NCBI RefSeq assembly: GCF_037893015.1
Contig: NC_133660.1
Span: forward strand, 283,829,534-283,893,533
DNA: 64,000 nt
Direction of reading: 5' to 3'
From: Macrotis lagotis
Taxonomy: Eukaryota > Chordata > Mammalia > Peramelemorphia > Peramelidae
Program-made: the position numbers and the translations under genes
Notes under the pieces: model-generated
Databases searched by the model: none
Seen by the model: the letters and a program-made list of their open reading frames with translations, nothing else
What the model was told of the DNA's origin: nothing
Shown here: piece by piece, positions 1 through 44,317 of the stretch
How the letters are laid out: each line of letters starts with the position of its first letter
How positions within the stretch are numbered: the first letter of the stretch is position 1

Positions 1-454
1 GACACTAGGGAGATGAAGGGCAAAGCTTCCTGAGGGCATCTGGGCTTGGCAGGACCCCCTACCCCTTGGCAGAAAAGTGGGTCAGGCCAGTGCAGCCAGC
101 CTCCTTCCAGTGAGCTAGAACCCATCCCACCTCCACCACTGAGGAGCTCTTCCCCCAGCCCACATAAGCAGCTTCCCCCTCCCCCCCAGGACTGCCCAGG
201 ACTAGGCTGATCCTTCTTCCAAGTGACTGCCCTTCTTCTGGCCTGCCCCACCCTGCCCCCAAGTCTTCTCCAGGTGAAAAATACTCAGATGGGGTGGGAC
301 CTGGGTGGCTTGTCACCTCCCTGGTCCTGGACTCCTTTAGTAAGAAGGATCTATTTATCTAGGAATGGACCCAAATTTAGAACTACAGTATTTCAGACCA
401 TAGAAAATAAAACAAGGACCTTCTAGAACCTAAGATTTCATCTGGTTCTCATCC

Positions 455-540
455 CTTCCTTTGACAGATGAGGAAAAATAAGTCCCAGAGAGGTTAAGGG
501 CTCTATCCAGGTATTAAGTGGTACAGCCAGGTCTAGGCTC
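455..540 (-). repeat. MIR/CORE-SINE relic
   Basis: The core 'gatgaggaaa...agagaggttaag' is recognisable, followed by a degraded 'cacagc' region. It is the antisense of the MIR core and is highly diverged, so it is old. Confidence 0.6.
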
Positions 541-597
541 AGGTTCAAAAGATTAGCTTCACAAGGCATGGTGGGGGGGGGCACCATTAAATATCAA

Positions 598-1115
598 CTG
601 ATCTGAAAAAGATCTGAGGGTCTCGGTGGAATATAAGTTCTGGATGAATAGGATGGGGCATCCAAGAAAGCAGGGTTTAGGAAAGACATGGAGAAGCTAC
701 AGAAAGTCTGGTGGAGGGCAACCAGGTGGGTGAAAGGCTTCAAGTTTGTGCCACATAAGGATTGGTTAAAGAAATGGGGCATGAGTAGCTCAGAGAAGCC
801 TGGAAGGGAAGAGGAGAGCTAGTTCCAGTATCTGCTCAAGGGTCACATTAAAGAATCTTGTTGGGTTTAGCGCCTCAGGGCAGGAGTGAGCAAAGAGGAG
901 GGAGGAGGAAGAGGCCACCCTGAGGCTGCTGGGTTAGCAAGAATTAGGCTTCTTCCTGCCCAGAGAGGGGGTGAGCTTGCCATGCCTGGAAGTCTCCAAG
1001 CAGAGGCTGCAGGACCACTTCTCAAATACATTGGAATGAGATTCCTTTCCTGTGGGGGTTGGACTAGACTGGCTGCTGAATTCTGGGATTCTCTCAAAAA
1101 TGAAGCTGGAGAGTT
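598..1115 (+). repeat. CR1/L3-like LINE 3' end
   Basis: The piece starts with 'atctgaaaaagatctgaggg', passes through 'gtggagggcaaccaggtggg', and ends with 'ggttggactagactggctgc' followed by 'ttctgggattct'. These are landmarks of the 3' part of CR1/L3 elements. It is truncated and diverged. A sister fragment lies at 54574-54910. Confidence 0.6.
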
Positions 1116-1674
1116 GGGGAAGGACATTAGAACATAAAACAACTTTAGAAGTGGGGGGGGGATGTCAGGGCTGGGAGGGTTTAGGCCACAGTCCATTATG
1201 CCAACCACCTTCTACTCATCTGCACATTGCTTGTTCCTAAAGGGCAGGTCTCCTGACCCCCCAGGGCCCCCCTGTGACCTCCGGGATCAAATATAAAATC
1301 TGTCTGGCCTGGAAAGCCCTTCAGTCCCCACCTCCATTGGGGTCCTTGGTGCTCCGGGTCGGCTTCCTGGCCGGTCCCTGCACATTTTCACAGGGTGGAC
1401 ACATCCCTTGCCCTGCCTCTCCCTTCCTCCCCTGGACTCCCTGACTGTCTCCCAACCATTCTGTCCATACCTCGGGGTGGGCTGCTATTGGGGGGGGAGC
1501 TGGTTTTGCCTTCCTCTGCATCCCTAGGACTTCAGGAGATACTTAATTCTTGCTTTTTGACTTAAAATAGGAAAGACCAGAGTTGGGGAGGTTGGAGGAG
1601 CCTGGACCTCAGCTGGAAGGGCTGGCTTGGGACAGTCGGGCCTCTCCTCTGCCACATCCCAACTGGGCACTCAC

Positions 1675-4600
1675 GGGTTCCAGTGCTCTTTGGAGACTCG
1701 ATAGAGGGTCCCGTACACGGCGGGCAGCACGGTGTGGCAATTGTCCTCAATGAGGCTCAGGATGTACTCATTGTTCCAGAAATACAGAGCCCGCTCTGCA
1801 ACCTGCAGGAACGGGGTGGCCCAGTGAGCCCCTGGCCCAGGGCCCCCTCCCAGATTTCCTTCTATCTCAGGGCCTAGCATGGCTGGCCTTTTATACCTCA
1901 GCTGGAAGAGAAACTGAGGCCCTCAGAGGACAAGGGACTTGGCCACCAAAGGAGCCTTGAATGCCAAAGTCAACCCTCTCTCCACTATACCAAGGTGCCC
2001 ATTTTTATAGATGTGAAGACTCAGGCCAAGAAACAACAAGAGGTGACCATTGTCTCCCAGATCATGGAAACTACATGGGATGATGGGTTAGAAATTGAGA
2101 GGTGGGTTGGTCCAATGCCCACATTTGACAGGTGAGGAAACTGAGGCCAGAGATGTTGAGTGACTTTGTCCAAGGTCACACAGGTGATGACTTAGTAAGG
2201 GCTAAGAAAACAGAACCCTTGTCCCTCTTGTCATGATGTTTCCTCTTAGGCACTGTCTCTCTGGGCCTCAATTTCCCCACCTGTAAAACAAGGGAGCTTT
2301 GTCTAAGCTTCCTTCCTGTGCTAAATCATATGACCCCTGCAGACCTCCCCCATGTGGAATGTGGAGGCTGAGCTGCGTGCTTGCTGAGGTCCTGTCTGGT
2401 TCCTTCCCCCCACTCCTGTCATCTTCTGTCTTCTGCACCCCCCCCCCACATCCATACCTGGAAGTGGGGGCTGGAGACACATCGAGCGACCTGTTTGAAG
2501 AGTGGTTCTTGGATCTTGACAAATTGGGAGGGCTCAATGACGTCCAGAATCTCCTCCATCTCCCCCAGGAACATCACCTGATAGATGGGGGGGCATCAGT
2601 GGCCCCCTCACTGAAGATGTCCCTCTAAGCCTCCCTCCCTCCTCTCCTCCCCAGTCGGTACCTCTTTCTGGGTGCAGGTTTTAGGCCAGTATTTGAGTAA
2701 TCCCCGGATCACCTGTGGGGCAGAAGGGAGTCAGAGGGAGAGAGCAAAAGCCCCGCCATCATGGAGTCAGGAGTACCTGAATTTAAATCCGGCCTCAGAC
2801 ACTTAATAATTGCCTAGCTGTGTGGCCTTGGGCAAGCTACTTAATCCCATTTGCCTTGCAAAAAAAAAAAGCCCCCGCCATCCACCATCCCCCTGAGGAT
2901 GAGCCACTCTGATGCCCTGGTCACTCACATGCTCGGTCAGGGTGGCGTCCTTTTCCAGGAATTGTACTACGCAATATGCCAGCTGCAGAGGGCAAGAGCC
3001 AGTCAGCCAGGCAGGAGAAAAAGAACAAGGCAAGGTGAACAAGCAGCTCCCCCCCAAGAGAGGCAGGGTACAAGGGGAACCAAAATATTACAGTGGGAGG
3101 GACCTCAAAGGTCATCAGTGCCACCCACCCCCATTTCACAGGTAAGGAAACTGAGGCCCAGAGAGGCAGTGTGACTGATCCCCGGTTCTAGCCAGGAAAC
3201 GGCAAGGCCAGACCAACACCTTTCTACTCTCCTTTGATGTTCCCCTAAAGTTTCATAGGGCAGGTCTATTTTCCAGTCTCTCTCTGGTTAGGTTGGGTGG
3301 GGCCCATCCTCCTGAGCAAAGGATCCCCTGGGAAGGGAAGGCTTGGCAACAGTGGTCCTGGAGACCCCGAATCCTCGGGTTCTACTTGGGGACTGAACCT
3401 TGGGCTGGCAACTCAGGGAGAAGGGGCTCACCTGGGCATGGAAGTTGGAGAGAGATTTGACTGAATGGAGAGGGATCAGCACACGGACCAGAAACTGTTT
3501 GTGCTCAGTCTTCAGGGGCAAAGCGAAGCCATTGATGATGCTGTGGAGTGGGGAGGACATGTGAGGGAGGAGCGAGAGGGGAGGAGAAGCAAGGATCCCC
3601 CCCAGCCCTGGGCTCAGGCCTGGGCCTAGACCCTGGACAGCTCCCTGGGCCAGGGTGGCTCACCTCCCTAGGATCTCCAGCAGCTCCGCCACACCATTGA
3701 AATGCTCTAGCTCATAGATGAACCTGGGGTAAGGGGGAGCAAGTAAGGAGACTTTTGAGCCCCGCCCTCCCAGAGTGTGCCCCCCTCCCCCAGAGCTAGG
3801 TTCCACTTGGAGCTCTACCTTTAAGTCTTTTTTTTTTTTTAGGTTTGTTTTTGCAAGGCAAATGGGGTTAAGTAGCTTGCCCAAGTCCACACAGCTAGGT
3901 ATTAAGTGTCTGAGGTTGCATTTGAACTCAGGTCCTCAGGGCGGGTGCTCCATCCACTGCGCCACCTAGCTGCCCCTACCTTTAACTCATACCCCTTTTT
4001 AACTCTCCCTTCTCCCAGATCCCTGGGTCTGCCCCTCACCCCCAGCCTAGTGCCCTGGGGCATGCTCACCTCAGCACCCCCCACCCCATCCCACAGCCGG
4101 GGTCAGGATGGCTCATGCACTCACCGTAGGAAGATGTGGTTACATTGCTTTCGAATGTAAGCCCGCAGGCCCAGAAACTTGCCATAGACTCGGTGCAGGA
4201 TGGTTTTGAGGTACTCTCGTTCCCGGGGATCCTCGCTGTCAAACAGCTCCAGGAGCTGTGGGCCCAAGGTCAGGGCCAGGCTGGCGGAGGGGAGGCCCCA
4301 GGCAGCCTCAAGGCCCGCTCCTTCCCTCCCTCCCTAGGCCGAGGGTCCCTCCAGCTCCAGTCCCGGGTACCAGACCCAGGCCCACCCCTCCCAGCCATCA
4401 AGCCCCTGGGCTCCCACTTCACCCACCATCAGCACAAACTTCTGATCCACGTATCTCTTGGCCACTGAAGGTTGGAAGTCTGGACTCTCCAAGAAACGAA
4501 GGAAAAACTCGTAGACCAGCTGGAGAGGGGAGGGGATGGAGAAGTGAAGCCAGCCCCTCACCCCCCACGCCCCAGCCCGTATTCTCCTGCCAGGCCTCAG

Positions 4601-5808
4601 CGCCTGGAGCCAAGCCCAGTCACCTGCAGATGGGGCCAGGAGGGCTCCAGGTTCGGTTCATCCTCTTCAGGGTCAAACTCCGGATTCTCACTGGGTGGCA
4701 GCGTCCGGAAGATATTCACTGAGATCTAAAAGGAAGGGTCAGGGTGCTCAGGAAGGGGCCCCTTCATGGCCTCTAGCCGGGGGGCCGGTAGAGCACAGAA
4801 CACCTGGGTTGGACGCCCGGAGTGGTGCGACCCCAGACGAGAACCTAACCCCCTGGGCCTCAGTTTCCTCATCGGTCCAATGAAGGGGCTTCTCAGGTCC
4901 TTTTCGGCTCGTGACCCACCACATCCTGCCCCCGTCGGCCTCACGAGGGAGTTGGGGGACCCAAGCCTGCTCACCATGCGGATGATATCGGGGTACACCG
5001 GCTCAATGAGGACACCCCGGGTGCCCCCCACACACTCCACCAGCTCATTGAGGGCCGCTCGCTTCACCTCCTTCCCCTTCAGGTCAGCCACACAGTCCAG
5101 GAAGTCAAAGAGGACCCCACACTGAGCCAGCTTCCGGCTGAGCAAGTCATGGAGCTCCGAGGCCGGCACATCTGCGGGAAGCAGGGCCAGGGTGAGCCCC
5201 GGGAGCAGAGGCCCCCCAGGGCTAGGGCCCCCTCGCCCCTTCCGAGGCCCGTCCACCTGCGTCCCCGCTGGGCTCCCCGGCTCTGGCGCCAGGTAAACAG
5301 GCTCGGGCTCTCCTGGGAGTTGGCCCGGAGATGGAGAAGCGATGCCCGAGGGATCCGAGGCGGCGCGGTCTCAGGAGCCCCGGGCCCCGGGAGCCGCAGA
5401 CTCATCCGGCTCCTTAGCAGCGCCGGCCCGGGGCTCCCACCGGCCGGAGACCCCCTGCTCCGAGACCCCCCCCCCCAGGACCAGTGCCCCCTCCGGGCTG
5501 ACGGGCACAGCAGAACATGCGTCAGCACCGGGAGGCAGAGCTGCCACCCCGAGAGGGCACGGCCCGGGGGGCAGAGGGGGGCCGGGCGTGGATGGGGGGG
5601 CCCACTCACCCTTGAGCAGCGGGAGGGGGGTGAGCTCCTGCTGGTTGCTCTGGTATCGGAACTGGGAAGAGCTGTGGGAACGCCGGGGCCGGGCCCTGCG
5701 GAGGGACCGCCGGGAGAAGCCGTCCACCTTGTCCGGCGGGGGGACCGGGGACAGCCCGGGGGAGGAGGGGCTGGTCGGGGTGCTGGCCGGGGGCAGCTTG
5801 GTGTCCAT
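1675..5808 (-). CDS. PPP2R5B: PP2A regulatory subunit B56-beta, partial (C-terminus off the window)
   Basis: This is the targeting subunit of the PP2A holoenzyme; it selects substrates (B56 family, LxxIxE-motif binding) and bridges to the catalytic core. Eleven exons join in frame on the minus strand: 5610-5808, 4975-5171, 4624-4725, 4427-4519, 4125-4255, 3664-3723, 3432-3540, 2929-2982, 2662-2712, 2458-2577 and 1675-1802. They give 1,244 nt, or 414 codons plus two bases. The product begins [18 protein letters not shown], has a Ser/Arg-rich N-terminal tail ([18 protein letters not shown]), and then the HEAT-like B56 body with blocks such as [35 protein letters not shown] and [20 protein letters not shown]. 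The N-terminal tail identifies the beta isoform rather than alpha, gamma, delta or epsilon. The start codon sits in a good context (gtcaccATGG). By comparison with the 497-residue human protein, about 83 residues are missing at the C-terminus, beyond base 1. No internal break is seen. All introns have GT/AG ends. Confidence 0.97.
2095..2205 (-). repeat. MIR/CORE-SINE relic
   Basis: 'ggtgaggaaactgaggcc' followed by 'ccaaggtcacacagg' is the antisense MIR core. It lies in PPP2R5B intron 10. Confidence 0.65.
2762..2870 (+). repeat. tRNA-derived marsupial SINE, 5'-truncated
   Basis: The copy runs from 'ggagtcaggagtacctga' through 'ggcctcagacacttaata' to 'ttgccttgc' plus an A-tail. It lacks the A-box half. 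It lies in PPP2R5B intron 8. Confidence 0.85.
3105..3180 (-). repeat. MIR/CORE-SINE relic
   Basis: 'ggaaactgaggcccagagag' is preceded by 'ccccatttcacag'. This is the antisense MIR core, in PPP2R5B intron 7. Confidence 0.6.
3828..3976 (-). repeat. tRNA-derived marsupial SINE, nearly full length
   Basis: An oligo-T stretch leads into 'tttgcaaggcaaatggggtt' and the copy ends 'gcgccacctagctgcccc', which is the reverse complement of the SINE head. It lies in PPP2R5B intron 5. Confidence 0.9.
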
Positions 5809-7633: not shown

Positions 7634-10600
7634 ATGAGCAGGAAAGGAGGGCCGGGGAAGAAGGCAAGGGAGCTGAGGGGCCTCCTGGAGCAGGTGGGAG
7701 GATGGGGTCGCTTCCAGATGATCCACCTGGTCATCCTGACGGTGCCTTTTGCCTTTGTGGGCACTCACGGTTTTCTCCAGAACTTCACGGCCACCATTCC
7801 TGACCACCGCTGCCGGAGCGCCGGCGACCTCTGGCCGGTGGATGCCCAGGGCCGGCCGGAGAGGTGCCTCCGCTTCCGGGGCAATGCTACCAACGAGACC
7901 GAGCCCTGTCTGGAGGGCTGGGTCTACAACCACTCGGCCATTGGGACCACCATTGTGTCGGAGGTAACAGGAACAGAGATGATGGCTAGCTTTGCTAGAC
8001 AAACGCTCCACTTGGGCAGCCTCTCAGAGACCCTAGGAGGTGGGGGGCTATTAGTCTTGCCCATGAGGAAATTGAGGCTCAAAGGGGGAAGTGACTTGTC
8101 CGAGGTCACTCTGCTAGACAGTCTCTAAGGGAGGGTTTGAACTCAGGTCTTCCTGCAGGTGAGGCCCTGTATCTCCGTCTTTGAAAGTTAGAAGATGGTT
8201 CTATCCTGCTGGAGTACACCCCCTAGTAACACTTGGGGAAACAATTTGATAAAGAAACAAGGGATTGAAGGAGTTTAAGGAAGATGAAGTCCATTCTGGC
8301 CGGCAGGGCCAGGGCGGCAGCCTTCCTGGGGGTGGAGACTGATGGCTAGATGGGATTTCCATGTGCAGAAAGATGGGAACTTTTCAGGCAGGTACTGTCC
8401 TGAGCTGCTGATGGGAGGGGGTGGGATGAACTGGGAGGGAAGGTAGTGGACTGTGAGGTAAATCAAAGCCCAGCCCAGCCCAATCCCATTATATTACAGA
8501 TGAGGAAACCAAGGCCCAAGGAGGTGAAATAATTACCCAAGGTCACAAGGTAGTAAGCAACCAACAAGCATTTATTAAGTTTCTACTGTATACAGACCCT
8601 GAACTATATATACTGGGAACACAAAAGGGCAAAAATGCAACAGTCCTCCCAGTTGAGAAGCTGGCCTTCACCCATGAGGCAGAGGCCTGGACTGGAGGGC
8701 TGAATGATCTGGATTCAAATCCCCTTCTAAGGCATTTATTCCTTCAAGTCACTTAATTTTTGTGCCTCAGTTTTCTCATTTCCAACATGGAGATGGGGGT
8801 GGAATCAATGACCTCTAAGGTCCCTTCCAGATAGAAATCTAAGGGTCACAGCTCTATTGGTTTCTACAACGTGGATGACAGACAGATTTGGGGAGACCAC
8901 TAGCCAGGAGGACCTTGCACTAAAGCTGGTTCTTGAGCCATTTTGAAGAAAAAAGAGATTCTGGTCAGTAGAAGTGAGATGGGAGGACATTCCAGATGTT
9001 GCTTGTCCAGAGGTGAGAGTATAGTTGGTAGACAGTAGGAGCTTAATAGAAGCATCTTCACTCATCCATCCACAATGAACTGAATTCAACATTTATTAAG
9101 AACTGGTGGTGTGCACAGCCCCAGACCAGCACTGACATAAGAGCTGAAGGCACCGTCCTCAGGGAGCCTCCAGTTTAGGGAGGTAGGACACTGAGGAAGC
9201 CATCTAAGCACCTTGGAGAGAGGGCCAACCCTTTCAGGTCGGCTCTGCTAGAGAATGACTGGACCAGTTGACTGCTGGGTGGCAAGACTGAGCAGTGAGG
9301 AGGAAGGGATGGCCAAGTCTGTTGTTCTTCCTCCTCCTCCTCCTCACCCCTTGATTTCATTCTCCCCTCTCCTCCTCTTGGCTCAGCTGTAACCACTGCT
9401 TTCCTGGGCATGTAATCAATGCCTTAGCTGCAGCCTTATAGGTAGGTGCAGGGGGAAAACTGAGGCTTGAAGGGTACATTGGAAATTCCCCAAGATGCCA
9501 GATGGCTGAGCCTGCCCAAGTTCACTCTCCTCTCCCAGTCCAGTTCTTCCCCCCCCCCAGTCTATCTACCTGGGTACAGGTGCTCCTGAGCCTCACCTTG
9601 CACTGTTCCCTCTCTTCCCCCCTTACCCTACAGTGGGACCTGGTCTGCAGTCTGAAAAGCCTTAAAGGGGTGGCCCAGTCAGTTTATATGGCAGGAGTGT
9701 TCCTGGGTGCCATCACATTTGGGAGACTGGCTGACAGGTAAGCATCATAGCAGTTCTGCCAGGTGGGCATCTGTCCCTGGGGCCAAAGGGGGAATTGCAG
9801 CTCCAATCAGTTGTTAGGTGGTCCCTCAGTGGAATGGCCCAAGAATGCCCATTCTTAAGACCCTGGTAGCAAAGGCTGAAGAAACCCTTCTCAGAGATGG
9901 GGGTACCAGGATGAGACTTTTTGTTGGGGTAGCTGAGGTCCCTTGCAGGACTGGCATCCAAATAATCTCCTAGGTTTCTAATTTGGATCTGTCAGGCAAT
10001 TGTCTTTCTTGGAACCTAACCTAGCCGGGTGTGTGTGTGTGTGTGTGGGGTGTTTTTTGGGGGGATTAGTGCAGACCAGGCTGGCCTTGACTCTGGTCTC
10101 TGCCCCTCCAGGCTGGGCCGAAGGACCATATTCCTTTGGTGCCTCCTTCAGGTGGCTTCTCTGAGCACAGGGGCAGCCCTGGCTCCCTCCTTCTCCATCT
10201 ACTGTGTCTGTCGCTGCCTCTGTGGCTGTGGCATGTGTGGCCTGGTGCTCAATGGAATGGGGCTTGGTGAGTAGAAGCGGGGGGCGGGGAGGCAGGTGGC
10301 ATGGAGGGACTGAGGCTTCCTTGCCACAGAGGCTCTGGCTAAGCCAGAATCTCCAGACTGAATGGGAGGTTGGGATATGCCAGAACTTCTGCCCCCACCC
10401 CCCAACTTGGACATTCAATGCTTTGGATTCCAAGGATTCTCAGCTCTATTTCTGAAGCAATCTGTGTTAAGTGACTTGCCCAGGGTCTCACAGCTAAGAC
10501 ATTATCAAGTGTCTGAGGTTGGATTTGAACTCATTTCCTCCCATCTTCAAGGTTTTGCTCTATACACTGTGCCACCTAGCTGCCACCTGATTGCCCCCAC

Positions 10601-13600
10601 CTCCCATCCTGTCCTTCTGGGATTGCTCCCCTTGGGTGTGTGTGGGACCTCCACCTTAACACCACTAAGGCATGCCAGATGGCTGAGCCTGCCCTTACAG
10701 GGTTGGACACCCCCTGACAAACCCCCTTACAGAGATAGGCCTGGAGGGGTAGGGTCAGCACTGTGAGAGAGGGCCTGTCTCTCCCCAGTTCTTGAGTGGA
10801 CGAAACCCTCTCACCGGGCAGCAGTGTCTGGCTTCCTTTCCTTTGTGCTCAGCCTGGGTCAGCTCAACCTGGCGCTGCTGGCCTTCGGCCTCCGGCACTG
10901 GAGGCACCTGCAGCTGGTTTCTGGGGCACCCTTTGCCCTCTGCTTCCTCTGTAGCTGGTGAGTACCTCGTGGGGCCAGACCCCACTACTGCCACGGGGAG
11001 GGTGATGGGTTGCTGGGCTTCAGGGTGTGGAGCAGGCCTGGCCTGGCTACACCTTGACTTCTGACTCTGCAGGTGGCTCCCAGAATCTGTCCGGTGGCTG
11101 ATGGTGAGGCGGCGCTTCTCAGGGGCCCTGAGGGCATTGAAGCTGGTGTCATGGATCAACAGGACTCCGGCAGCCAGAGTCCAGCTCTCCCTGGAGGTGA
11201 GGAGGCGGTGGGGGGGGGCAGGAAGGGGCTGGCCGCTCCCCAGAGTCCACTGGAGTCAGCTCCTGAGACTTTTCTCTTCTCCATAGATGTTGGAATCAGA
11301 CTATTCCCAGGAAGAGGGTGGAGAAAGCCCAGAATATTCTGTCCTGGACCTCTTTCAAACCCTGGAGATCTCGGCCCTATTGGCTTTTATCATGGGAATT
11401 TGGTGAGTGAGGTGGGGGTCAGGAAAGTTTGGGATTGAGCCAGGAAACAGAAAGTCTGGGAGGGAAGGGCAGGCTCCTGTTTCCTTTCCCCAGGACCTTG
11501 GTTCTAGAGTCAGAAGTCACCTAGCCCGACCCTCTCATTTTACAGATAAGGGAAACTGAGGCCCAATTTCCTGTAAGGTCCCTGGACTTCACCAAGTATT
11601 TATCAAACAGAGAATTCTGGAGAAAAGGGGACAATCCCTCCTTTGGGACTGAATGGGTAGGACTGTAACTGGGGGGAAAGTCACCCATCCACATGGCCCC
11701 CCGGGGACGCACCTTTGATGTGTGTGATGGTGAGTTGGCAAGCTCAGTTTAGGGAACCTGCTTCTTAAAGGGACCTCAAGGCTGAGCTTCTTTTGTTTTA
11801 TATTTGTGGGTCTAAGAATGTGAGAGGTGGAAAGACCCATGGAGCATGGAAGGTCAGAGCTAGAATGGACCTTAAGAACATAAAGCATCAGTGATAGAAG
11901 CAACCTGGGACCATGGGAGACAGAATATCCACAGTGGGGAGACCTTGGAACACAGAACACAGAAAGAAGCATAAAATATGGAATATCAGAGACAGAAAGG
12001 ATCTTGGGAACCTAGAACAGAGAACAGGGAGCTTCAGAGGTAGAAGGAAACTTGGAACATAAGACATGAAACATCAATGAAAGGAAGCTTGGCACATCCA
12101 ACCCAGGAGAGACCTTGGAACGGAGAACATGGAACTTCAGAACTAGAGACCTTGGAACTTAGAACACAGAACATCGGAGCTGGGAGGAACCTCAGAACAA
12201 GGACCATGGAACCTCCACACGAGGAAGGATCTTGGAGGCCAGCTAGTCTGGCTGTCTCACTTTACCAATGAGGAAGATGAAGCGTCATGCGGCAATGACC
12301 AATATCATACAGAATTAGCGACTGGGCAAGATTGGAATCCAGGCAGCTCATTTCCTAGCTCTAGGTTTGTTTAAAGGAGGTGCTTTGGTGGGGAAGGCGA
12401 AGCAGATTGGGTTGATCCCCCCCTTTCCTGTCCCTCTCCTCCCCCAGGTTCTCTTCCAGCCTTGCCTTCAATTCCCTGGCCCTGGATCTCCAGCGTTTCC
12501 CTGGGGAAGATCCCTACTTGGTTCAGCTCATCCTGGGGGTCATTGATCTCCCCTTTCGCTTCCTGGTGTCCAAGCTGGCCGACTGTCTGGGGCGCAAGCT
12601 CACTCTGGCCTCTTGCATGATACTTGGAGGGAGCCTCCTTCTGGGGGCCACTGCAGTGCCACAGGGTGGGTATGGGTGGGTGGGCCAGAGACTGCCTGCA
12701 GAAATCTGGGGGATGGAAGGGCTGACCTTGACCCTCACCTCCTCAGCCTCTGCCTCTGAGGGGATGGAGCTTGGGGCAACCGTGGCTGGGAAAGCCCTTG
12801 GGGGGCGGAGGCACAGGAAGGCTGGACAGCCCTCTTCCGGGCCTCTAGGCCCTCCCACTGTGCCAGTTCAGATGTACTAGATTCCCCCCTCCCCCACTTA
12901 GACTATGGCTGATCCATGAGCTGGGTTGCCTTCCCCCTCCTTTACCCTCTCTGCTCCTCTACTGTTGCCCTGAGCCCTCTGGTCCCTTGGTCTGATTCTG
13001 GCCTCTGCCCCTTGTGCCCACAGAGCTGGGTCACCTGCGCATGGGGCTGTCAGCCCTGGCCAAAGGCTTCACCTCAGCCTCCCTCAGCTGCACCATCCTC
13101 GTGGCCTCTGAGGTCTTCCCAACCTCCCACCGGTGAGTCCTGGGCCCTCCTCCCTCTCCCTCCCAGATGTCTGGGTGTCTGTGTCCCACATACCTGAAAT
13201 CCTTTGAAGCCTGGGCAAGATGCCAAGCAAATATTAAGCCCTTACTGTATGACCAGGATACACCAGGAAACCTGGCTTCAGGTCCTGCTTTTCCTACTCA
13301 CTCTGGGCTATGTGATCCTGACAAGGACATTTCCCCCCCAAGAGATGACCTCGAAGGGTCCACATGCTCCAAATCTGGGGATCGGTGTCAGGAATTCTCT
13401 GAGGTGGCGGGTGTTGCTGTGTGTAGGTGTGTCCAAGCATGTGCCCGACCACACCCTTTCTGCTACTTTGTAGGATGACTGGCATGGGCATCACCAACAT
13501 GGTGGGCCAACTGGGAGGGGTAATAGCCCCACTGGTCCTGCTGGCAGGTCCCATGCTCCCTCTGCTGCCGCCCATGCTCTTTGGTACCACCATCTTGCTT

Positions 13601-13681
13601 GCCAGCTTCCTGGTTGTCTTCCTGCCTGAGACAAGGGGTCTGCCCTTGCCCGACACCTTGGAACAAGCTCAGAGCCAGTAG
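7634..13681 (+). CDS. SLC22 organic-anion-transporter-like protein
   Basis: This is a plasma-membrane MFS transporter of the SLC22 OAT clade; the substrate cannot be told. Coding exons are 7634-7963, 9634-9737, 10112-10266, 10789-10957, 11073-11196, 11287-11402, 12448-12665, 13024-13132 and 13474-13681. Exons of 104, 155, 169, 124 and 109 bases match the usual SLC22 pattern. The 510-residue product begins MSRKGGPGKKARELRGLLEQ and carries TM1, then a short extracellular loop with N-glycosylation sites (NFT, NAT, NET, NHS). The MFS signature GRLADRLGRRT, the SWWLPES motif and a C-terminal LPETRGLPLPDT follow. The start at 7634 is the first in-frame ATG (A at -3) and adds about 15 residues before the usual OAT start region. 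The reading frame is intact. Residues are unusual: Gln replaces the TM11 arginine at 13508, and FNS replaces the usual YYG of TM7. Similarity points to the SLC22A6/A8/A11/A12/A20 group; which human gene is the ortholog is unresolved, so no symbol is given. Confidence 0.88.
8055..8160 (-). repeat. MIR/CORE-SINE relic
   Basis: 'catgaggaaattgaggctca' followed by 'gtgacttgtccgaggtcac' and 'gggtttgaactcaggtcttc' is a diverged antisense core. It lies in intron 1 of the SLC22 gene. Confidence 0.6.
8480..8790. repeat. Cluster of old SINE/L2-type relics
   Basis: This holds an antisense MIR core ('gatgaggaaaccaaggccca'), then a piece resembling 'caagcatttattaagtttct' repeats, then a sense MIR-like tail ('tgcctcagttttctcattt'). 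It lies in intron 1 of the SLC22 gene; I see no exon here. Confidence 0.5.
10465..10590 (-). repeat. tRNA-derived marsupial SINE, truncated
   Basis: The copy runs from 'ttaagtgacttgcccagggt' to 'ctgtgccacctagctgcc'. The T-rich end is lost. It lies in intron 3 of the SLC22 gene. Confidence 0.85.
11815..12260 (+). repeat. Degenerate minisatellite, unit about 40-45 bases
   Basis: The motif 'gagaccttggaac', then 'agaacacagaacat', then 'cagagctag' recurs about ten times with point changes and length drift. It lies in intron 6 of the SLC22 gene. The reverse complement of the same unit forms the array at 50490-50960. Confidence 0.75.
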
Positions 13682-14690
13682 GTGCCCTCTAGCCCTCTTC
13701 TCCAGCCTTCCCTGGAAGATATCCTGACTCTTGGGATCTCCCCAGGGCTTCCCTCCTCCACCCTCTCCCTCTGTGGCTCCAGCCTGAAGAGGCCTGAGTG
13801 CCCCCTTGCCCCCTGAGCTGCCTGAAGGGAAAAAGGGAGGGGACTGAGCCGCCAACAAGCTCCATCCCTTCTTCCTGTCCCTCTCCAGGATCCAGAGATG
13901 CTGGCTCAGATTGCGGAGGAAGCCATGGCAAAGGGCCCAACCCATCCAGACCAAGCTCTGACATCCTCGGGAGGAGTCTTCCCCAGTTTGGCCCAAGAAG
14001 AGGATGGTGCTCCATCACGGTGGAATGGGAAGCCGGCCGCTTCCTGCCTCCAGGACCTTGGACAGGCCCCTGGCTGACCTCTGGATCTCTCTGCTCTAGG
14101 GCCCTTCCAGTGGGAGTTGCAAGTGGAATTTTCCCAACTGGGGTGAACTCTGAGTCACATCAGACGCCTCGAGTCACTTATTATCCATTTACTTATTCAC
14201 TCGCTAAGAATCACAAACTGCCCTAGTTACAGGGGACTGTGACTAGAAGGATCAGAGAAACACGTTTTCGGGCATGAGCCAACATTGCACACGCAGCCCA
14301 CGGTACATCCGGGTGACCCTCTGGACCCTGAAACCTGCTATGACTCCCATGCCCGCCCCCCTGCCCGGCCGAGGGCTCCATCTCTGGGGCTCTTTGGGTC
14401 AAGGTGGGTGGATGACCTCATCGGGCGCCCTCCTGGGTCCTCTGGGATCCCTGTGGGCTGCTTCCTCCGGACAGGGTCACAGGGCCTGGCCCTGGGCGGT
14501 CCTCCTTGAGCCAATGGCAGCTTTCAAGGGGCCGAGATGAAGGAGGTCCATCGGGGAATCTGTCCCGGTCCGTCTGCCTGTCCAGGGACTAACCGAGCAG
14601 CCTCCTCCTCACCTCTCGGCCTCCAGGGTCCAGCCCGCACACCCAAGGGCCATTATCGTTTCACCCAATAAACACCTATCGATCAGAATT
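13682..14690 (+). other. 3' untranslated region of the SLC22 gene
   Basis: Unique sequence from the stop codon to the poly(A) signal AATAAA at 14667-14672. Cleavage is expected 15-25 bases later. I see no further SLC22-like exon. Only about 1.1 kb separates the signal from the ATG2A start codon. Confidence 0.6.
14667..14672 (+). terminator. Poly(A) signal of the SLC22 gene
   Basis: Canonical AATAAA about 1 kb after the stop codon, before the next gene on the same strand. Confidence 0.65.
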
Positions 14691-15780: not shown

Positions 15781-18700
15781 ATGTCGCGCTGGCTGTGGCC
15801 CTGGTCCAGCTGCATGAAGAAGCGCGCCTGCCGCTACCTGCTGCAGCACTACCTGGGCCACTTCCTGCAGGAGCGCCTCAGCCTGGAGCAGCTCAGCCTG
15901 GACCTGTACCGGGGCAGCGGCGGCCTGCGGGACATCCAGCTGGACGTCTGGGTGAGCGCCGGCCCGGGCCGCGGGGGCCGCGGGGGCCGGCCCGGGGCGG
16001 GGGGCCCGCGAGGCCTCGGCGCCTGACCTGTGACCTCAGCAGCTGGGCCGGGCCGCGCCCGCCCTCCTCCGCGATTGGCCGCGGCCGGCCCGGGCCTGAG
16101 GTCAGCGGCCGCGCCTCCGCCCCTCCGCCGGCCAAACAGGCCCGGGCTCCCTGCCCCCCGAGAGCCGGGGAGAGCCGGGGCCCCCCCCGAGCCGGGGCGC
16201 CCCGAGAGCCGGGGCCCCCCCCGAGAGCCGGGGCCCCCCCAAGCCGGGGTCCCTCCCGAGAGCCGGGGACCCCCCCCCGAGCCGGGGGCGCCCCTGGAGC
16301 CGGGGACCCCCCGAGCCGGGGTCCCTCCCGAGAGCCGCCCCCCCCCGAGCCAGCCCCCCCCAGCCTCCCCCATGCAAGGACCCGCCCCCGCCGGCAGGGA
16401 CCCCCAGGCCCTCAGCCGCCGACTCCCGAGACCCTCGCTGGCTGCGAGGACCCCCGAGGCCGGCCCCCGCCGGCTGACCCTTCCCGGGGCTCCCCAGGCA
16501 GGGTGACCGCTTCTGGATGGGGCCCTGTGTCGCGGCCCCTCCCGCCAGGGGAGGGCAGAGGGAAGGCCAGAGGCAGCCATCAGCACCCCCAGGACCCCCG
16601 GGCCTTCCCGGGGGGTGAGCGGCCTCCGCGGATGTGACCCCCGTTTTGCGGCCTGGCCCGGCCTCAGTCTTCCGGCCCTTAGAGAGCCTGGGGGTGCTGC
16701 TGGAGCGGGCACTGAAGTGGGACCCCAGACAGGGGTGTAGTCTGCTGCACCTTCTCTTGTCCCGTGCCCCCACCCTGTTTGGGGTTTTCTCCAGGTGGCT
16801 TGTTGTTCCTGCTCCACCCTCCTATAGAGGAGGGAATTGGGGTAAACAAGGTGGAGTGACTCAGCCAGGGCCCTACGACCAGCAAGTGCCTGGGGGAAGA
16901 TTTGAACTCTGGTCTGGTGACTCCAGGCCTGGGGCTCTGTGGCCCCACCTAGTGCCTGTAGCTGTCCTCTTTGGCACAGCTGAGGCTCTGCCCTGAGCTG
17001 GGGGCAGGGGTGGGGGCAGGGCTCTGGCCTCCCAGGTCCAACCACCCTCGCCCTCAGCCCCAGCGTGTCCCCCTCTTCCTAGTCTGTGAACGAGCTGCTG
17101 GAGTCTGTGGAGTCCCCGCTGGAACTGGTCGATGGCTTCGTGGGCTCCATCGAGGTGGCCGTGCCCTGGGCCGCCCTCCTTACTGACCACTGCACCATGC
17201 GGGTGTCCGGCCTGCAGCTCACCCTGCGGCCGCGGAGCGGGCAAGGTGAGGCCGGGGCCGGGGAGAGGGAGCTGGGGGCCTGGGCCGGGGGCCTGGTCCT
17301 GACCCCTGCTTCCCACAGCGCCTGGGACGGCCGAGTCCCAGAGCTGGACCTCCTGTATGACCACCAGCCTGCAGCTGGCTCAGGAGTGCCTTCGTGAGGG
17401 GCCCCCCGAGCCCTCCGAGCCCCCCCAGCCCTTGGAGGGCCTGGAGATGTTCGCGCAGACCATTGAGACGGGTGAGTGGTCTGAGCCCAGGCCTTTCCTT
17501 CCCTTTGGATGTTCCCCTGCTCCCGGGGCCTGGACCGAAGGGGCTGCCGGTCTTGAGTGTCCCCCACCACCCTTCCCTTCTCTCGACTGCCCTGGAGACT
17601 GGGAGGCCGTGGCGTCCGGGGTCGGGCCTGACTCTGGTCTCTCCCACCCCAGTGCTTCGGAGGATCAAAGTGACCTTCCTGGACACCATTGTGCGGGTGG
17701 AGCACGGGCCAGGTGGCGGAGACAGCAGCATGGCTGTGGAGGTCCACATTCAGAGGTGGGCAGGCACCCCCAGGGGGCAAGGAGCAAGCTCGGGACTCAT
17801 TAGCACCCTTCCACCTCCATACCTTTGCTCTGATTGGTCTGGGCTGGTCTGGCCTGGCCCCAGGGTCCTCCTTGTGCCCTGACTGGGGTCTCCCCTCTTT
17901 CCCCCCAGACTGGAGTACTGTGACGAGGCCGTCCGGGATCCAAGCCAGGCCCCCCCTGTGGACGTGCACCAGCCCCCTGCCTTCTTGCACAAGCTGCTTC
18001 AGCTTTCTGGCGTGAAGCTTCACTATGAAGAACGTCCCCCCCATCAGGTGGGAGTCCTACCAAAGGGCTGGGGGGATAAGGGGGCCCCCCTTCTGATCTC
18101 TGAACTCTGACCTCTGCTCTTTCAGGAAGAGCCCCCCGGACCCCCCCTGCAGATTGGCAGCTGCTCTGGCTACATGGAGCTAACCCTAAAACTGAAGCAG
18201 AACGAGGCCTTCCCTGGGCCCAGGGTAGGGACCCTTGGGGAGAGGGGTCATGTGGGGGGCCTGGGCACAGGACAGATGAGGGGGTCACGGTGCCAGGGGC
18301 AAGGCAGGGGTCTGTAGGCTGCGGGGAGAGGGAGGGGGCCGCTGAAAAATGGATCAAAGGATTCCTTCCAGCTCTGCCTGGGGATGGGCTCCCTCTCCAT
18401 CGGGCTCAGCTGATCCATCTCTGTCTCTCTCCCCCTCTGCAGATGGAGGTGTCGGGGCAGGTGGGTTGCCTGCACTTGCTCCTGGCTCCCCAACATCTCC
18501 TGCAGCTGCAGGACCTCCTCAGTGCTCTCAACCTAGCTGGTGAGGCCCCAGCCCAAGCCGGGGAGGGGTCAGGACCGCCATAGTTCCAGGTGGGGGTGGC
18601 CAGCCATGCTGCAGCCTGAGGGTCTCCTCCACTCTCCCCCCAGACACAGAGGGACTGTCAGAGAAGGTGAACAAGTGCCGCCCCCTTGGGGCCGAGGACT

Positions 18701-21700
18701 TGAGGCTCATCGAACAGGACCTGAGCCAGCAGCTGCAGGGGGGCAGCCCGGCCCTCTCCTCAGACCCTCTGGTGGGCATGGAAAGCACAGGTATGGGATG
18801 GGACCTTGGCCTGAATGGGGGGGGGGGGCACCATGGCATTCCCTCTGAGTCGGCCTCCCCTTCTCCCCCAACGTCCAGATCTCTTCTTCTCCATGGCCGC
18901 TCTGACCAGCAGCGTGACATCGGCCCGCTCTGTGTCTGAGTTATCCCTCTCGGATGTGGACCTGAGCTCATCCCTGCACAGTGATGGAACCTCCCGGCGC
19001 CCCCACACCCACCCTGCCCTCCATGGTCTCAGTCGCCTGCCCGGTGAGGGAGAGGACTGGGCTGCTCCCCCTCTCTTATCCTTCCCACCCCAAGGCCTGT
19101 GTTCCTGTCACCCCAAATGGGGGGGAGGGGTTATCACAGTGGGTAAGGCAGGATGGGCTGAGGGGGGTCCCTGTTTTGCCTTCCAAGGGGGCATTCCTCC
19201 ATGACTCACCCACCCAACTGGGTTAGGATCAGTCCCATTGTAGGCTTTCCACAAGTGAATGTTTGTGGTAGACGAGGCCATTCTTAGATTGAACTGGAAG
19301 GAGAGCAGGGAGCACTGGGACCTTTGGGAGTGTGGGGGAAGGCATGCCAGGGTTCCCCAGAGCATTGCCCAGGTCCCCAATACCAGCAGCTCACTCTTCC
19401 TACAGGCAAGGCCACAGCCCCCATTCCCCCTGAGAGCCTGCGTCCAGAGTCGCTGTTGAAGGTGACCTTGGGCGGTCTGACGCTGACAGCCCTGCAGCAG
19501 CCCCCGGGGGCACCCCCTGGATGCCCCCCTGACCTGGCCACCCAATTCTTTGCCGAGTTTGACGCAACCAAAGAAGGGCCCTTTGGGTCCCGGGACTTTC
19601 ACCACCTTCGACCCCGCTTCCAGAAGGCCTGCCCCCGAAGCCACGTGAGGTATGGAGTGGGTGGGAGGGCTGGGGTGGGGTCCGGACCATATGGGGGAGA
19701 GGGGAGATGGAGTGGCTGCTGAGAGCCATGCCCTGGACCTTGCAGGCTAACAGGCTCTGCGGTGCAGCTGAGCTGGGAGCAGCGAGGAGGGGCTGGAGGT
19801 AGGGGCCGGGCCTTCAGCACCGACCTGCTCTTTGGCCAGTTGGAAGTGTTGGAGTGTCTGTGGCCCGAAGGGGCAGCTGAGCCCGAGTACAGGGAGGTGA
19901 GTGGTGGTGGTGGGGCCTGGCCCTATGGCGGGGGGAAGTGTGCCCCCAGCCAGACCTTCACGTGGCCTCCCCCCTTCCTGTCCCCACAGCTCCTGAGCTT
20001 CCCCAGTGGCTCCGGCTTTGGGACCTCAGCCCGTCCCTGTGCCCACCTGCGCTATATCCAGACCCAGCGCCGGATCCCCAAGGTAAAGAGGGGAGGCCTC
20101 TGTTTCTTTTCAGCCCTCTCCCTGAGGTTCCTTCCCTTTAACTCTGTGCCCTCCCATCTTTGCCCATTGCCAGAGCCACCCACGGCGGGCAGCTTCATGC
20201 CACTGTACCTCTGACTTGTCCCTGGAGCTGGCTGGATTCCAGTCTGACGTGGAGCTGGGGGCTCTGGACCGGCTTGGGGCCCTCTTCCATCTGGCCACCA
20301 CGCCGATGGACCAGGAGCAGGGCTTGCTGGTGAGCCGGCCAGGGGGCAGTGAGGTGGGGAGACAGAACCTGGAGGGGTCAGAGAGCCGGTCAGCAAGCTC
20401 CCTGCTTGCCTGGGAGGGGTCCAGGCTCCCGGAGGAAGGCCAAGCCAGGTGGGGGCGGCACAGGCTTCCAGGAGTGAAGCGCACGGGGTTTTGCCCAGGA
20501 GTTGGAGGGTGGCATGGAGGTCTCAGCTGCCAGGCTTTTGTTGCCTTGTTTCTGTGCCAGACTTGTGATTTCGTGGGTGTTGGGGACCCTTCCTTTCTCC
20601 ATCCCTGAGGCTCTTGGGGGGGGGCGGGGTCTCAGCCAGGAAGACTGCCCCCAGGCTTCCACACATTCTCAGGCTCAATTCCCTCTCTTTCATCAGAACG
20701 GGAGAGATGGGGGGAGGTCAGAGGATTTGTCCTTGGCTCTGCGCCTCCTCGTTGATACAGTGGAAGAGCTGTGGGTCTCGGAGGGGCTGGGGTCAGGAGA
20801 GGAGCTCCCGAGAAGGCCCAAGTACCCCTGAGTCTCACCTTCCCCCAGGGAGAACCTCCTTGTGCTGTGGAGCACCAGACGGCTCTGCGGGTCATGGCCC
20901 CCCATGCCACCCTGCGGCTGCGGTTCCCCATCCCTGACCTGCGCCCAGAGCGTGACCCTTGGGCGGGCAAGGCTGTGCGTGAGGAGCTTCTCCGCCTCGA
21001 GCTGACGGACCTCCAGTTCCAATCTGAGCTGAGCCACGGCCTGGGTCCACAGGCCCCCACCCGCATGGAGCTGACTTGTAGTGACCTGCACGGTAGGGGA
21101 GCCTCAGAACCCGTCCCCAGCCCTGAACCTTGGACCAGGCTTGGTCTAGTGGTGACCGGTTCTCCTTTCTTCCTCTGATCCATCACAGGGATTTATGAAG
21201 ACAGAGAGAAACCCGCTGTCCCCTGCCTTCGTGTCACCAAAACCCTGGACCCCCAGGTCCCTGACCGCAAGTACATCCTGCCCAAGTAAGTGGGGGTTCT
21301 TCCCCACACACAGCAGATTGAGCCATGGGGCTGGGGGGTCCGGGCTCCCAGCCCCCCTGTGACAGCCCTGCTCCCTGGCAGGGCAGTGGTGACCCTTAAT
21401 CCCCAGTACAGCAGCTCCCAGTGGGACCTGGTACTGGAGAAGGGGGACGACCCGGAGCTGTCATCGGCTGAGAGCCCCTGTGAGCTGCGCCAGCCTGAGC
21501 CCTCTCCCTTTTCCTCCAAGAGGACCATGTATGAAACTGAGGAGGTGAGGCCCCTCTGCCAGGCCCGCTGCCCCCCAGAGAGTGAGGACGACCTGGGTCA
21601 GGGGGCGGATGGTCACGACTGCCCCACAGGGCAGACACAGACCCTGGCTCTCCAGAGTTTAGTCAAATTAGTGATGCGGAAGGGCAGCGTCCTGTGACGT

Positions 21701-24700
21701 CATGTCACCTTATATCCATCGGTAATTGGCATTTATTGAGTGTCTGCTGTGTTGGGCCCTGAGGCTATGGGGAGAGGTGCAGGGAGCTCCCAGCCTAACA
21801 GGGCAGAGTATAGGGGACCTGGGGGGGGTGTCTCGTAGCAGCTGAGGCTTTACTTGGGACTGAAGGAGACCCAGAAGAGCAGGAGGGGAGCAGCCAGAGA
21901 GATGCCAGGGCCCTGAATTTCTCTGGATGCTGGAAAAGCAGCAAAGGCAAATGAAGTGTTTTATGTTTGCTCTGGATGGGGGGGGGGATTCCCTCTGGTG
22001 GCCGAGTGGAGGAGGAGGAATGGGGGGGGGAGGCTTGAGGCCAGCCAGACCCCCAGCAGCTGCTGCCATCATCCAGGACTGAGGGTATGAGAGTCTGTCC
22101 CAGGATGGGGGCTGGGTTGGGGGAGAGGAGAGGGCGTGGGGGAGAGGAGGGCAGAGGGAGGTCGTTGAAGCAAAATCAACAGGCCATTGAGTCTGGGGCA
22201 AACCCCAGGTGGGGGGGGTCTAGAAGGATGATGGCAGGACCCCGCCCCCCGTACACACATCCAGAGTCATCGGTGAGGGGAAACGTTAGAGAGTGCAGTT
22301 TTGATCAGTCTGAGGTCCAGAGACGTCAGGAGGCCTGCAGAGCAGCCAGGGCAGGCAGGTAGAGGGGAGTCTGATGAGGTCAGCAGGAGGGAAGGGACGG
22401 AGGCCCACAACAGAGCCTTGGGGGGCTCCCTGGTCCCGGGGTGGGATCCAGTGAAGAAGCCATAGAGGGAGCAGGATCAGGAGGAGAGGTGCCGAGGAGT
22501 GGCCCTTGGCTTTGACCACTAAGACTGAGCTAGAGCTGTGCTAGGAGAGGGAGGGAGGTATCCCTGAGGTGCCCACGGTATGCAGCCCCACAAGTAACAT
22601 CTCACAAGGGTCCTGCGGGGGGGGGGTGCCGTTGATCCTCAGGTAGCAGGTGGCTTATCGGCAGGAGCGGCTCTGCACTGTGATGTGCCCCCCATCCTGT
22701 GACCCAATTTGCCTGGGGTGGAGTCATTGCAAAAGAGGTTGGGTCCATAGCTCCGGGGAGCCCCAGAGGGTTTCTGAGCATCCAAGGAGTGACCTCTGGG
22801 TCACTGAGAAGAGGGTGTGGGAGAGGCGGCTTGGAGGGGGATGGACCAGAGGCCTGGCCCGGTCAAGGTTGACTTCAGAGGAAAAGGGCTTTGTGTGATG
22901 CCCAAGCAAGGGTCTGTGGCATTGGGCAAGGCCCACATAGCTGCCTCTGCTTGAAGCCTGGCAGTGACGGGGAGCTCACTCCTGTTGATGGTTCATTCCA
23001 TTTGTTGATAACTGGGGCTCAAACCTCAAAGCACTTCTTCAGCACCTCTCGTTGCTCTTTTAATCCCGTTGGGACTTCACTTTTGACCTTATCCACTGAA
23101 CTCAGTGGTCTGGTGAGCTCAGGGTGGGAGCCCCCTACTCATTCAGGAGAAGAGTGGCCACGCCAGCCCCAACTGAGCTTTGGGGGATCCTCCGGCCCTC
23201 CCAGATGGTGATTCCCGGTGATCCTGAGGAGATGGGAGAATTCCAGAGCCGGACGTTGGCCCTGTCCCGATGCAGCCTGGAGCTGACCCTACCCAGTGCC
23301 CACATCTTTCTGCCCAGCAAGGAGGTCTACGAGAGCATCTACAACAGGTGGGCATGCACCTGGGGGCCCAGCCAAGGAGGGTCAGGAGCCCCTGCTCCTC
23401 TCACCTGGCTATTCTTCCCTCCCATCCTCTCTCCTCCTGCCCCCCTAGGATAAACAACGACCTGCTGATGTGGGAGCCTGGGGACCTGCTCCCTGATCTT
23501 GGCCCCGCTGCTGCCGCAGCTGCTTCTGGCTTCCCTGGGCCCTCCACCTTCTGGCAGGACAACTTCAAGATGTGCAAATCTGCCTTTAAATTGGGTATGA
23601 GGGCTCTAGCTCCCACCTCACCCCAGCCAAGGATGCTGGGAAGGAGAACCTGGGGTCTGGGGCCTGGTCATGGGGCTGGTCAGGAACCAGGCCCCTGGTG
23701 ACCAAGTGTCCTTCCTGTACCTAGACTCAGACTCTGAAGATGAAGACACTCACTTCTTCTCGGTGGATGAGCCAGGTGTCCCACAGCCCCCCGCACCGGA
23801 AGCCCGCAGTTCCCGGGCCCAGAGCACCTTCTCTACTCTGATGACAGTGCTGAAGGGACGCATCACTGTCCTGTGTGAGACCAAGGTGAATGAAGCCAGG
23901 GCAGAGGTGGTGGGGGGGCTTCCAGGTCAAGCCAGGGCTTTCTGAGGTGGGGCAGAGACCCTGAGGATGCCAGCAGCAGCTACATCTCAGCTGGGCCATG
24001 TCTGGGCCAGGCTGGTTCAGCTTGGGCTTGTGTATCACAGGGTGAGGATGGGAAGAAGCTGGAGGACTGTCATGGGGAGCTGGTCCTCGATGTGACCCAG
24101 GGCACCATCTTCAGTGTCTCCCAGTACCTGGGCCAGCCAGGCCTTGGCTACCTCTGTCTCGAGTCTGAGAAGGCGGCTCTTTACCACCAAGGTATGAGTG
24201 GAGCACCCTAGGCCTGGGGGAGGGAACAGAGGAGCAGGGGGAGCCCCCCCTGCTAAGGCTCTTCCTTTTCTTCAGCGGTAGTGGAGGACTACTTACTACC
24301 TTCCCGACTCGAGGTGCCTAGTTTCATGCCTCCTGCCCATCTGGCACCAACCATCTACCCCTCAGAGGAAGGAGTGACAGATCGGGGAGCCACAGGCCGA
24401 AAGGGTCAGGGCCAGGGGCCACGCATGCTCTCTACAGCTGTGCGCATTCACCTGGACCCCAAGAAGAACGTCAAGGTACCGTGCCACCTTCAACCAGCGT
24501 GTTTAGCAGATGTGAGCCTGGGAGGCTACCCCTGATGCCTGCCATGCTCTGACCCTGTGTTTCCTCTCCCCCAGGAATTCCTAGTGACCCTGCGGCTACA
24601 TGGAGCCACTCTCCGCCACCGCATGGCGCTGCCTAGCCAAAGTTGGCACTGCCAGGTGAGGGGGGGGAGGTGAGGGGGCTGCTCTGAGCCCCTGCTGCCT

Positions 24701-44017: not shown

Positions 44018-44106
44018 CCGGGTGGCACCCACTCCCTGTAACAGCAACTCCATGTGGGACGGTTTTCTGCTTCCAGTGGGGGTGCTGTTACCTTGGGTGG
44101 GCAGCC
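44018..44106 (+). ncRNA. MIR194-2: microRNA mir-194 precursor
   Basis: The 5p arm at 44037-44058 reads TGTAACAGCAACTCCATGTG plus GG, identical to miR-194-5p through 21 bases and differing only at the last (G for A). The 3p arm at 44073-44094 reads CCAGTGGGGGTGCTGTTACC plus TT, close to miR-194-2-3p. The arms pair across a loop of about 14 bases. The miRNA represses many epithelial and hepatic targets. It lies 179 bases before miR-192 and shares its strand with ATG2A and EHD1, as in the human MIR194-2/MIR192 cluster. Confidence 0.97.
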
Positions 44107-44214: not shown

Positions 44215-44317
44215 CCCTGACAGAGTGCGCAGGGCTCTGACCTATGAATTGACAGCCAGTCCTCATTCTCCCTTCTGGCTGCCAATTCCATAGGTCACAG
44301 GTATGTTCGCCTCATTG
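44215..44317 (+). ncRNA. MIR192: microRNA mir-192 precursor
   Basis: The 5p arm at 44237-44257 begins CTGACCTATGAATTGACAGC and then C, identical to miR-192-5p. The 3p arm at 44279-44300 (CTGCCAATTCCATAGGTCAC, then AG) is identical to miR-192-3p. The flanks AGGGCT and GTATGTTCGCCTCA are conserved too. The hairpin is complete with a loop of about 21 bases. It belongs to the p53- and HNF1A-linked miR-192/194 cluster, and shares a primary transcript with mir-194. Confidence 0.98.

What the first reader, a model, noticed from the sequence alone, without database searches (positions are those of the whole stretch)
7634..13681. Intact SLC22 gene lies between PPP2R5B and ATG2A
From what I know of human 11q13.1, ATG2A and PPP2R5B are head-to-head neighbours a few hundred bases apart. 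Here an intact, intron-bearing OAT-like gene, with canonical SLC22 exon sizes and its own poly(A) signal, sits between them. Either eutherians lost an ancestral gene or a member of the nearby OAT cluster moved in. Introns rule out a retrocopy.
Basis: partly seen in the sequence, partly recalled or inferred. Interest (0 to 1): 0.72.

Follow-up and report, generated by a model that had tools for sequence, protein, structure and literature searches.

The report
Extra organic-anion-transporter gene beside ATG2A
An intact transporter gene of the SLC22 family, apparently a separate branch of the organic anion transporters, lies between two well-known neighbour genes in what looks like a marsupial genome; it is a solid but fairly ordinary gene-family finding whose loss in other mammals is likely but not shown.

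Summary
Nine exons (window 7634-13681, + strand) with GT-AG splice sites join into one 510-residue frame. The exon plan is that of SLC22A20 in the same genome, save one codon and the length of exon 1. The protein belongs to the SLC22 organic-anion-transporter (OAT) group. The gene sits between PPP2R5B and ATG2A in a gap-free stretch of a 305-Mb contig, and the surrounding gene order is, as I recall it, that of human 11q13.1. It is not a displaced known neighbour: SLC22A20, a SLC22A12-type gene, SLC22A6 and SLC22A8 lie elsewhere in the same genome and group with their counterparts. The window gene pairs with none (best identity 42%) and forms its own long branch, weakly beside A9/A11/A12. Best reading: an OAT lineage older than the marsupial-eutherian split, kept here and missing from eutherians. 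A very fast-evolving copy of A20, A8 or A9 is not excluded. Gate residues are kept but the anion pocket is rebuilt (TM11 arginine is glutamine, TM7 Tyr-Tyr is Phe-Asn), so I expect a carrier with substrates unlike OAT1's. No other vertebrate genome, expression or selection data could be reached.

The parts
7634..7963 (+). coding exon 1 (TM1 and the large extracellular loop)
9634..9737 (+). coding exon 2, 104 bases
10112..10266 (+). coding exon 3, 155 bases
10789..10957 (+). coding exon 4, 169 bases
11073..11196 (+). coding exon 5, 124 bases
11287..11402 (+). coding exon 6, 116 bases
12448..12665 (+). coding exon 7, 218 bases (one codon more than the 215 of SLC22A20 of this genome)
13024..13132 (+). 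coding exon 8, 109 bases
13474..13681 (+). coding exon 9 with the stop codon, 208 bases
14667..14672 (+). AATAAA, the only AATAAA/ATTAAA between the stop codon and ATG2A
1..5808 (-). 5' part of PPP2R5B (runs out of the window at its low end)
15781..38072 (+). ATG2A; start shown by similarity, end read by eye from the sequence, no full model made
   Evidence: start; end, by eye
44023..44104 (+). miR-194 precursor (synteny anchor)
44229..44306 (+). miR-192 precursor (synteny anchor)
63939..64000 (+). start of EHD1 (synteny anchor)

Best explanation
This is an intact protein-coding gene of the OAT part of the SLC22 family. It is an OAT paralogue lineage that was already separate before marsupials and eutherians parted, kept at its place between PPP2R5B and ATG2A in this (by inference marsupial) genome and absent from eutherians through loss. 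The product most likely works as a major-facilitator carrier in the plasma membrane, alternating between outward and inward states by the conserved gate salt bridges. Its central pocket lacks several OAT anion and chloride residues, so it probably does not act as an alpha-ketoglutarate/organic-anion exchanger like OAT1 but carries other, perhaps less acidic or neutral, solutes. Shown: gene structure, OAT-group membership, synteny, presence of neighbouring OAT genes in the same genome, residue changes. Inferred: age, loss in eutherians, membrane location, the number of helices, substrate class.
For: Gene model and similarity. Gene order SLC22A20-CAPN1-FAU-ARL2-PPP2R5B-[this gene]-ATG2A-miR-194/192-EHD1, with 0 N in the joined 304 kb. 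A genome-wide protein search finds this gene at one place and A20, an A12-type gene, A8 and A6 at separate places. In a 14-row tree own A6, A8 and A20 pair with their human, rat or recalled counterparts at 100/100, own A12 falls in the A9/A11/A12 group (100/97), and the window gene stands alone on a branch of 1.19 beside that group (89/90, below the mark for significance). AU tests reject it as one clade with A6 (p 0.016), A12 (0.011), A11 (0.011) or E3 (0.0099). Gate pairs D378-K431, E212-R454 and R219-E447 (rat OAT1 numbering) are kept; R466 is Q, Y354 is N, Y353 is F, G227 is S, Y230 is L, F438 is L. In OAT1, R466K and Y354F have no activity (passages of PMC10643130). A sheep block list names no fourth SLC22 gene.
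Against: The long branch makes placement and age unsure: AU does not reject one clade with A20 (p 0.058), A9 (0.055) or A8 (0.099), nor a place outside all the others (0.121); the groups were named after trees had been seen and the p values are uncorrected. It keeps 89 of 109 columns that are invariant in eight other OAT rows; in leave-one-out checks the eight other rows keep between 89 of 89 and 89 of 99. Several changed pocket positions also vary in other OATs (E3 has S at 227 and A at 230, human A11 has L at 438 and R at 382, recalled A12 has F at 353 and 354), and Y353F keeps about half activity in OAT1. A crude hydropathy scan gave 16 overlapping peaks, not twelve clean helices. TIGR00898 stays below its cut-off. 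No expression, no orthologue, no selection test. Human was not looked at; the sheep list has 5 unnamed LOC entries that could hide the gene.
Confidence: 0.55

Rival explanations
1. A lineage-specific (marsupial) duplicate of an existing OAT gene of the region, most likely SLC22A20 195 kb away, that moved in and then evolved very fast; eutherians never had it.
For: A20 is the nearest OAT gene that I modelled, has the same internal exon sizes save one codon and shares the highest identity, 42%, with human OAT1. AU does not reject window gene + A20 (p 0.058, 0.074). Further OAT-like exons lie at C3:283.47-283.57 Mb, so the region may have gained OAT genes.
Against: The gene is no closer to A20 than to A6 (both 42%), and the best trees do not join them. 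It would need strong acceleration: its end branch is 1.19, against 0.11 for own A20 after a stem of 0.48.
Confidence: 0.3
2. The gene is a recently silenced or decaying copy that still looks intact.
For: Longest branch of the OAT rows and change of several otherwise conserved pocket residues; no expression evidence.
Against: Nine exons with GT-AG splice sites, no stop or frameshift over 510 codons; MFS motif, PESxRW and PETxG motifs and all three gate pairs kept.
Confidence: 0.1
3. Misassembly has put an OAT gene between PPP2R5B and ATG2A.
For: None seen.
Against: No N in the window or in the joined 304 kb, within a 305-Mb contig. A 111-base probe over exon 2 is found once in the genome. The flanking genes agree with human 11q13.1 as recalled and with the genes of the sheep block list.
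Confidence: 0.03

Closest known systems
SLC22A6 (OAT1)
   Same: 42% identity over the length, same gate salt bridges, same internal exon sizes but for one codon in the model of the own A6 (size-limited)
   Different: Separate gene with its own orthologue in this genome (C3:285.78 Mb); window gene differs at R466, Y353, Y354, Y230, G227, F438
SLC22A20 (OAT6)
   Same: 42% identity, same internal exon sizes but for one codon, same region of the chromosome
   Different: Orthologue present beside CAPN1 (C3:283.62-283.64 Mb) on the other strand; it keeps R466 and the Tyr-Tyr pair
SLC22A12/A11/A9 (URAT1, OAT4, OAT7) group
   Same: Nearest group in the 14-row tree (89/90); LPLPDT near the end as in A11 and A12, though OAT1 has QPLPDT
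   Different: 40-41% identity to A12 and A11; AU rejects one clade with A12 or with A11 alone; the A12-type gene lies 375 kb away in this genome

Membership tests
SLC22 family | sequence similarity over the whole carrier domain | tested here: met
   37 PDB sequences at E up to 0.001, the best 26 of them SLC22; Pfam Sugar_tr and MFS_1 above cut-off
SLC22 family | TIGR00898 (2A0119) score above its curated cut-off | tested here: not met
   377.5 bits against a cut-off of 550.75, match over the full profile, best of the 25 models listed; not run on the other OAT genes, so the meaning of the cut-off is open
SLC22 family | MFS signature between TM2 and TM3, and PESxRW and PETxG motifs (the last two recalled as typical) | tested here: met
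   GRLADRLGRR, PESVRW, PETRG
SLC22 family | twelve transmembrane helices | tested here: inconclusive
   hydropathy scan gave 16 overlapping peaks; no structure prediction run
OAT subgroup | groups with A6/A8/A20/A9/A11/A12 apart from A7, A13 and OCT1 | tested here: met
OAT subgroup | OAT exon plan | tested here: met
   104,155,169,124,116,218,109,208 against 104,155,169,124,116,215,109,208 in own A20; own A6 and A12 agree under a size-limited search
OAT subgroup | arginine on TM11 (R466 of OAT1), stated in PMC10643130 to be in all OATs | tested here: not met
   Gln at window residue 454; Arg in 11 of 12 other rows, Asn in recalled A9
OAT subgroup | transport of organic anions | not testable with these tools
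   needs a transport assay
orthologue of SLC22A20 | one-to-one place and pairing in the tree | tested here: not met
   the A20 orthologue lies beside CAPN1; not joined in the trees, though AU p is 0.058
orthologue of SLC22A6, A8 or A12 | pairing in the tree | tested here: not met
   another gene of this genome groups with each

The most novel reading that the evidence does not exclude
A whole OAT lineage, older than the therian split and without the TM11 arginine held to be universal in OATs, survives in non-eutherian mammals with a non-anionic or otherwise new substrate, and was lost in the eutherian ancestor.
Probability: 0.3. Interest if true: 0.5.

Novelty: new member of a known kind. Interest (0 to 1): 0.35.

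Why it matters
SLC22 genes are main drug, urate and metabolite carriers of kidney and liver, and their mammalian history is mostly drawn from eutherians. A further OAT lineage in the SLC22 region, apparently without a eutherian counterpart, would change counts of gene gain and loss. It would also warn against reading marsupial drug clearance from human genes, and offers a natural test of what the OAT pocket residues do.

Tried and rejected
Retrocopy: rejected, eight introns. Displaced SLC22A20 or A12: rejected, both found elsewhere. Kidney promoter signature: within two mismatches of GTTAATNATTAAC the 6 sites of the window all lie from 27573 on, none near the gene. The alternative splice combination of 512 aa was dropped because exon 8 goes out of frame with the family. 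Structure prediction was not run, because the spliced product is not read letter for letter from one DNA frame. A survey of the OAT-like exons at C3:283.47-283.57 Mb and of the minus-strand cluster at 285.36-285.66 Mb was planned but the letters were not obtained.

Full report
What was checked. The finding names an intact, intron-bearing SLC22 gene at 7634-13681 between PPP2R5B and ATG2A. I enumerated GT and AG sites within 6 bases of the guessed ends of nine exons. Two combinations without an internal stop remain; one keeps OAT-like sequence throughout and gives 510 residues with exons of 330, 104, 155, 169, 124, 116, 218, 109 and 208 bases. Introns run from 90 to 1670 bases, the window has no N, and one AATAAA at 14667 precedes ATG2A.

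What the protein is. Against the PDB, 37 distinct sequences reach E 0.001; human OAT1 leads (380 bits), then URAT1 (354), OAT4 (342), and the first cation transporter at 182. Pfam gives Sugar_tr and MFS_1. TIGR00898 matches over its full length at 377.5 bits, below its curated cut-off of 550.75. A crude hydropathy scan shows 16 overlapping peaks and does not by itself give twelve helices; the fold is inferred from similarity.

Where it lies. The own assembly has 3.66 Gb in 607 contigs, and the window is C3:283829534-283893533 of a 305-Mb contig. I fetched 240 kb upstream, joined it to the window (304 kb, 0 N) and searched it with recalled proteins. The order is SLC22A20, CAPN1, FAU, ARL2, PPP2R5B, this gene, ATG2A, EHD1, with miR-194 and miR-192 between the last two. 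From memory this is the human 11q13.1 order apart from the extra gene. The listing of a 790-kb sheep block names SLC22A11, SLC22A12 and SLC22A20 with PPP2R5B, ATG2A, EHD1 and MIR194 and no fourth named SLC22 gene, but 5 LOC entries are unresolved (one passage of PMC10298528). Human itself was not examined.

The other OAT genes of the same genome. A genome-wide protein search gave 66 exon-level matches at E 0.01; 84 of 113 candidates were scored, so counts are lower bounds. Nine of the 66 are this gene. The others fall on C3 at 283.47-283.57 Mb, 283.62-283.64 (A20), 284.22, 285.36-285.66 and 285.74-285.81 Mb, and on C1, C5 and C8. I modelled five genes: A20, an A12-type gene at 284.22 Mb, A8 at 285.74 and A6 at 285.78 Mb, and E3 at 285.79 Mb. 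The A20 model put no rule on exon sizes and gave 375, 104, 155, 169, 124, 116, 215, 109 and 208. The models were held within 9 bases, in steps of 3, of these internal sizes, so their agreement is partly built in; their last exons are 208 in A12 and A6 and read on to 280 in A8 and 268 in E3. Identity to the human row is 71.8% (A6), 70.7% (A8, recalled) and 60.6% (A12, recalled). [quoted passage not shown] this is inference. The same paper counts 16 SLC22 genes in marsupials; I could not see whether this gene is among them.

Tree. In the 12-row tree the gene falls in the OAT group (95/96) but joins no member; identity is 42% to own A20 and to human A6. In the 14-row tree own A6, A8 and A20 pair with their counterparts at 100/100, own A12 falls in the A9/A11/A12 group (100/97), and the window gene lies next to that group at 89/90 on a branch of 1.19. 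Of nine groupings named, one is already in the tree. Of the eight tested, four are rejected at 0.05 (A6 0.016, E3 0.0099, A12 0.011, A11 0.011) and four are not (A20 0.058, A9 0.055, A8 0.099, outside all the others 0.121). The groupings were named after the first trees and the p values are uncorrected. Without recalled rows (9 rows, no outgroup) the gene attaches between the A11/A12 pair and the rest, with A20 0.074, A8 0.061, A6 0.047 and E3 0.011. So age and origin stay open between an old lineage and a fast copy. I favour the old lineage because the gene is about equally far from every OAT group that human and this genome share.

How it may work. In OAT1 (PMC10643130, passages) alpha-ketoglutarate binds near Lys382, Tyr353 and Gly227; Arg466 lies by the chloride site and tolerates neither Ala nor Lys; Tyr354Phe is inactive, while Tyr353Phe keeps about half activity; Asp378-Lys431, Glu212-Arg454 and Arg219-Glu447 are the gate pairs. 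In this protein all three gate pairs are kept, while R466 is Gln, Y354 Asn, Y353 Phe, G227 Ser, Y230 Leu, F438 Leu, N439 Ser and K382 Arg. R466 is Arg in 11 of 12 other rows; the twelfth is recalled A9 with Asn. Some of the other positions vary among working OATs too. The protein keeps 89 of 109 columns invariant in eight unrecalled OAT rows, where those rows keep 89 of 89 to 89 of 99 in leave-one-out checks, or 76 of 86 in a set with recalled rows. I read this as a working MFS carrier with a rebuilt pocket; substrate and tissue are unknown. No HNF1-like site lies near the gene.

What is known in print. In the held library, searches for SLC22 with marsupial terms (20 of 39 listed), for ATG2A/PPP2R5B with SLC22, for SLC22A20 with pseudogene or eutherian (20 of 786 listed), for zebrafish OAT synteny, for SLC22 with monotreme, koala and gene loss (15 of 17 listed), for ATG2A/PPP2R5B/11q13/EHD1, and for gene loss with eutherian, marsupial and solute carrier family 22 (none) showed no description of this gene in titles and starts of abstracts. 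The zebrafish paper (PMC4982206; abstract, passages and first part of the results) finds OAT4-7 and URAT1 only in mammals and calls SLC22A20 an isolated gene on human chromosome 11. The gene may well carry an automatic LOC name in marsupial annotations, which I could not see.

Verdict. Loss in eutherians is likely but unproven.

Noticed in passing
L032-L033 (G000:C3:285791402-285805744): An extra intact-looking OAT gene (E3) just beyond SLC22A6, 55.5% identical to human OAT1, not pairing with A6, A8 or A20 in the tree; possibly another OAT without a human counterpart.
   Followed up: partly
G000:C3:283467056-283566204: OAT-like exons on the + strand beside SLC22A20, with three exon-9-type matches and one exon-1-type match; perhaps up to three more genes near A20. 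Letters could not be fetched.
   Followed up: no
G000:C3:285360916-285660387: About five minus-strand OAT-like genes in a row next to A8 and A6 (five exon-1-type and five exon-9-type matches), perhaps the counterpart of the A9/A10/A24/A25 cluster.
   Followed up: no
window 41972-41984: HNF1-like site with one mismatch 2 kb upstream of miR-194/miR-192; from memory that microRNA pair is HNF1A-driven in eutherians.
   Followed up: no
window 61070-61822: Array of a 28-base unit (ATTTTGGGTGGTGGGCATTAGGAAGACC), about 15 copies plus a further 5, interrupted by pieces that look like a SINE found elsewhere in the window.
   Followed up: no
window 16170-16351: Tandem array of a 34-base G+C-rich unit, about 5 copies, in intron 1 of ATG2A.
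   Followed up: no
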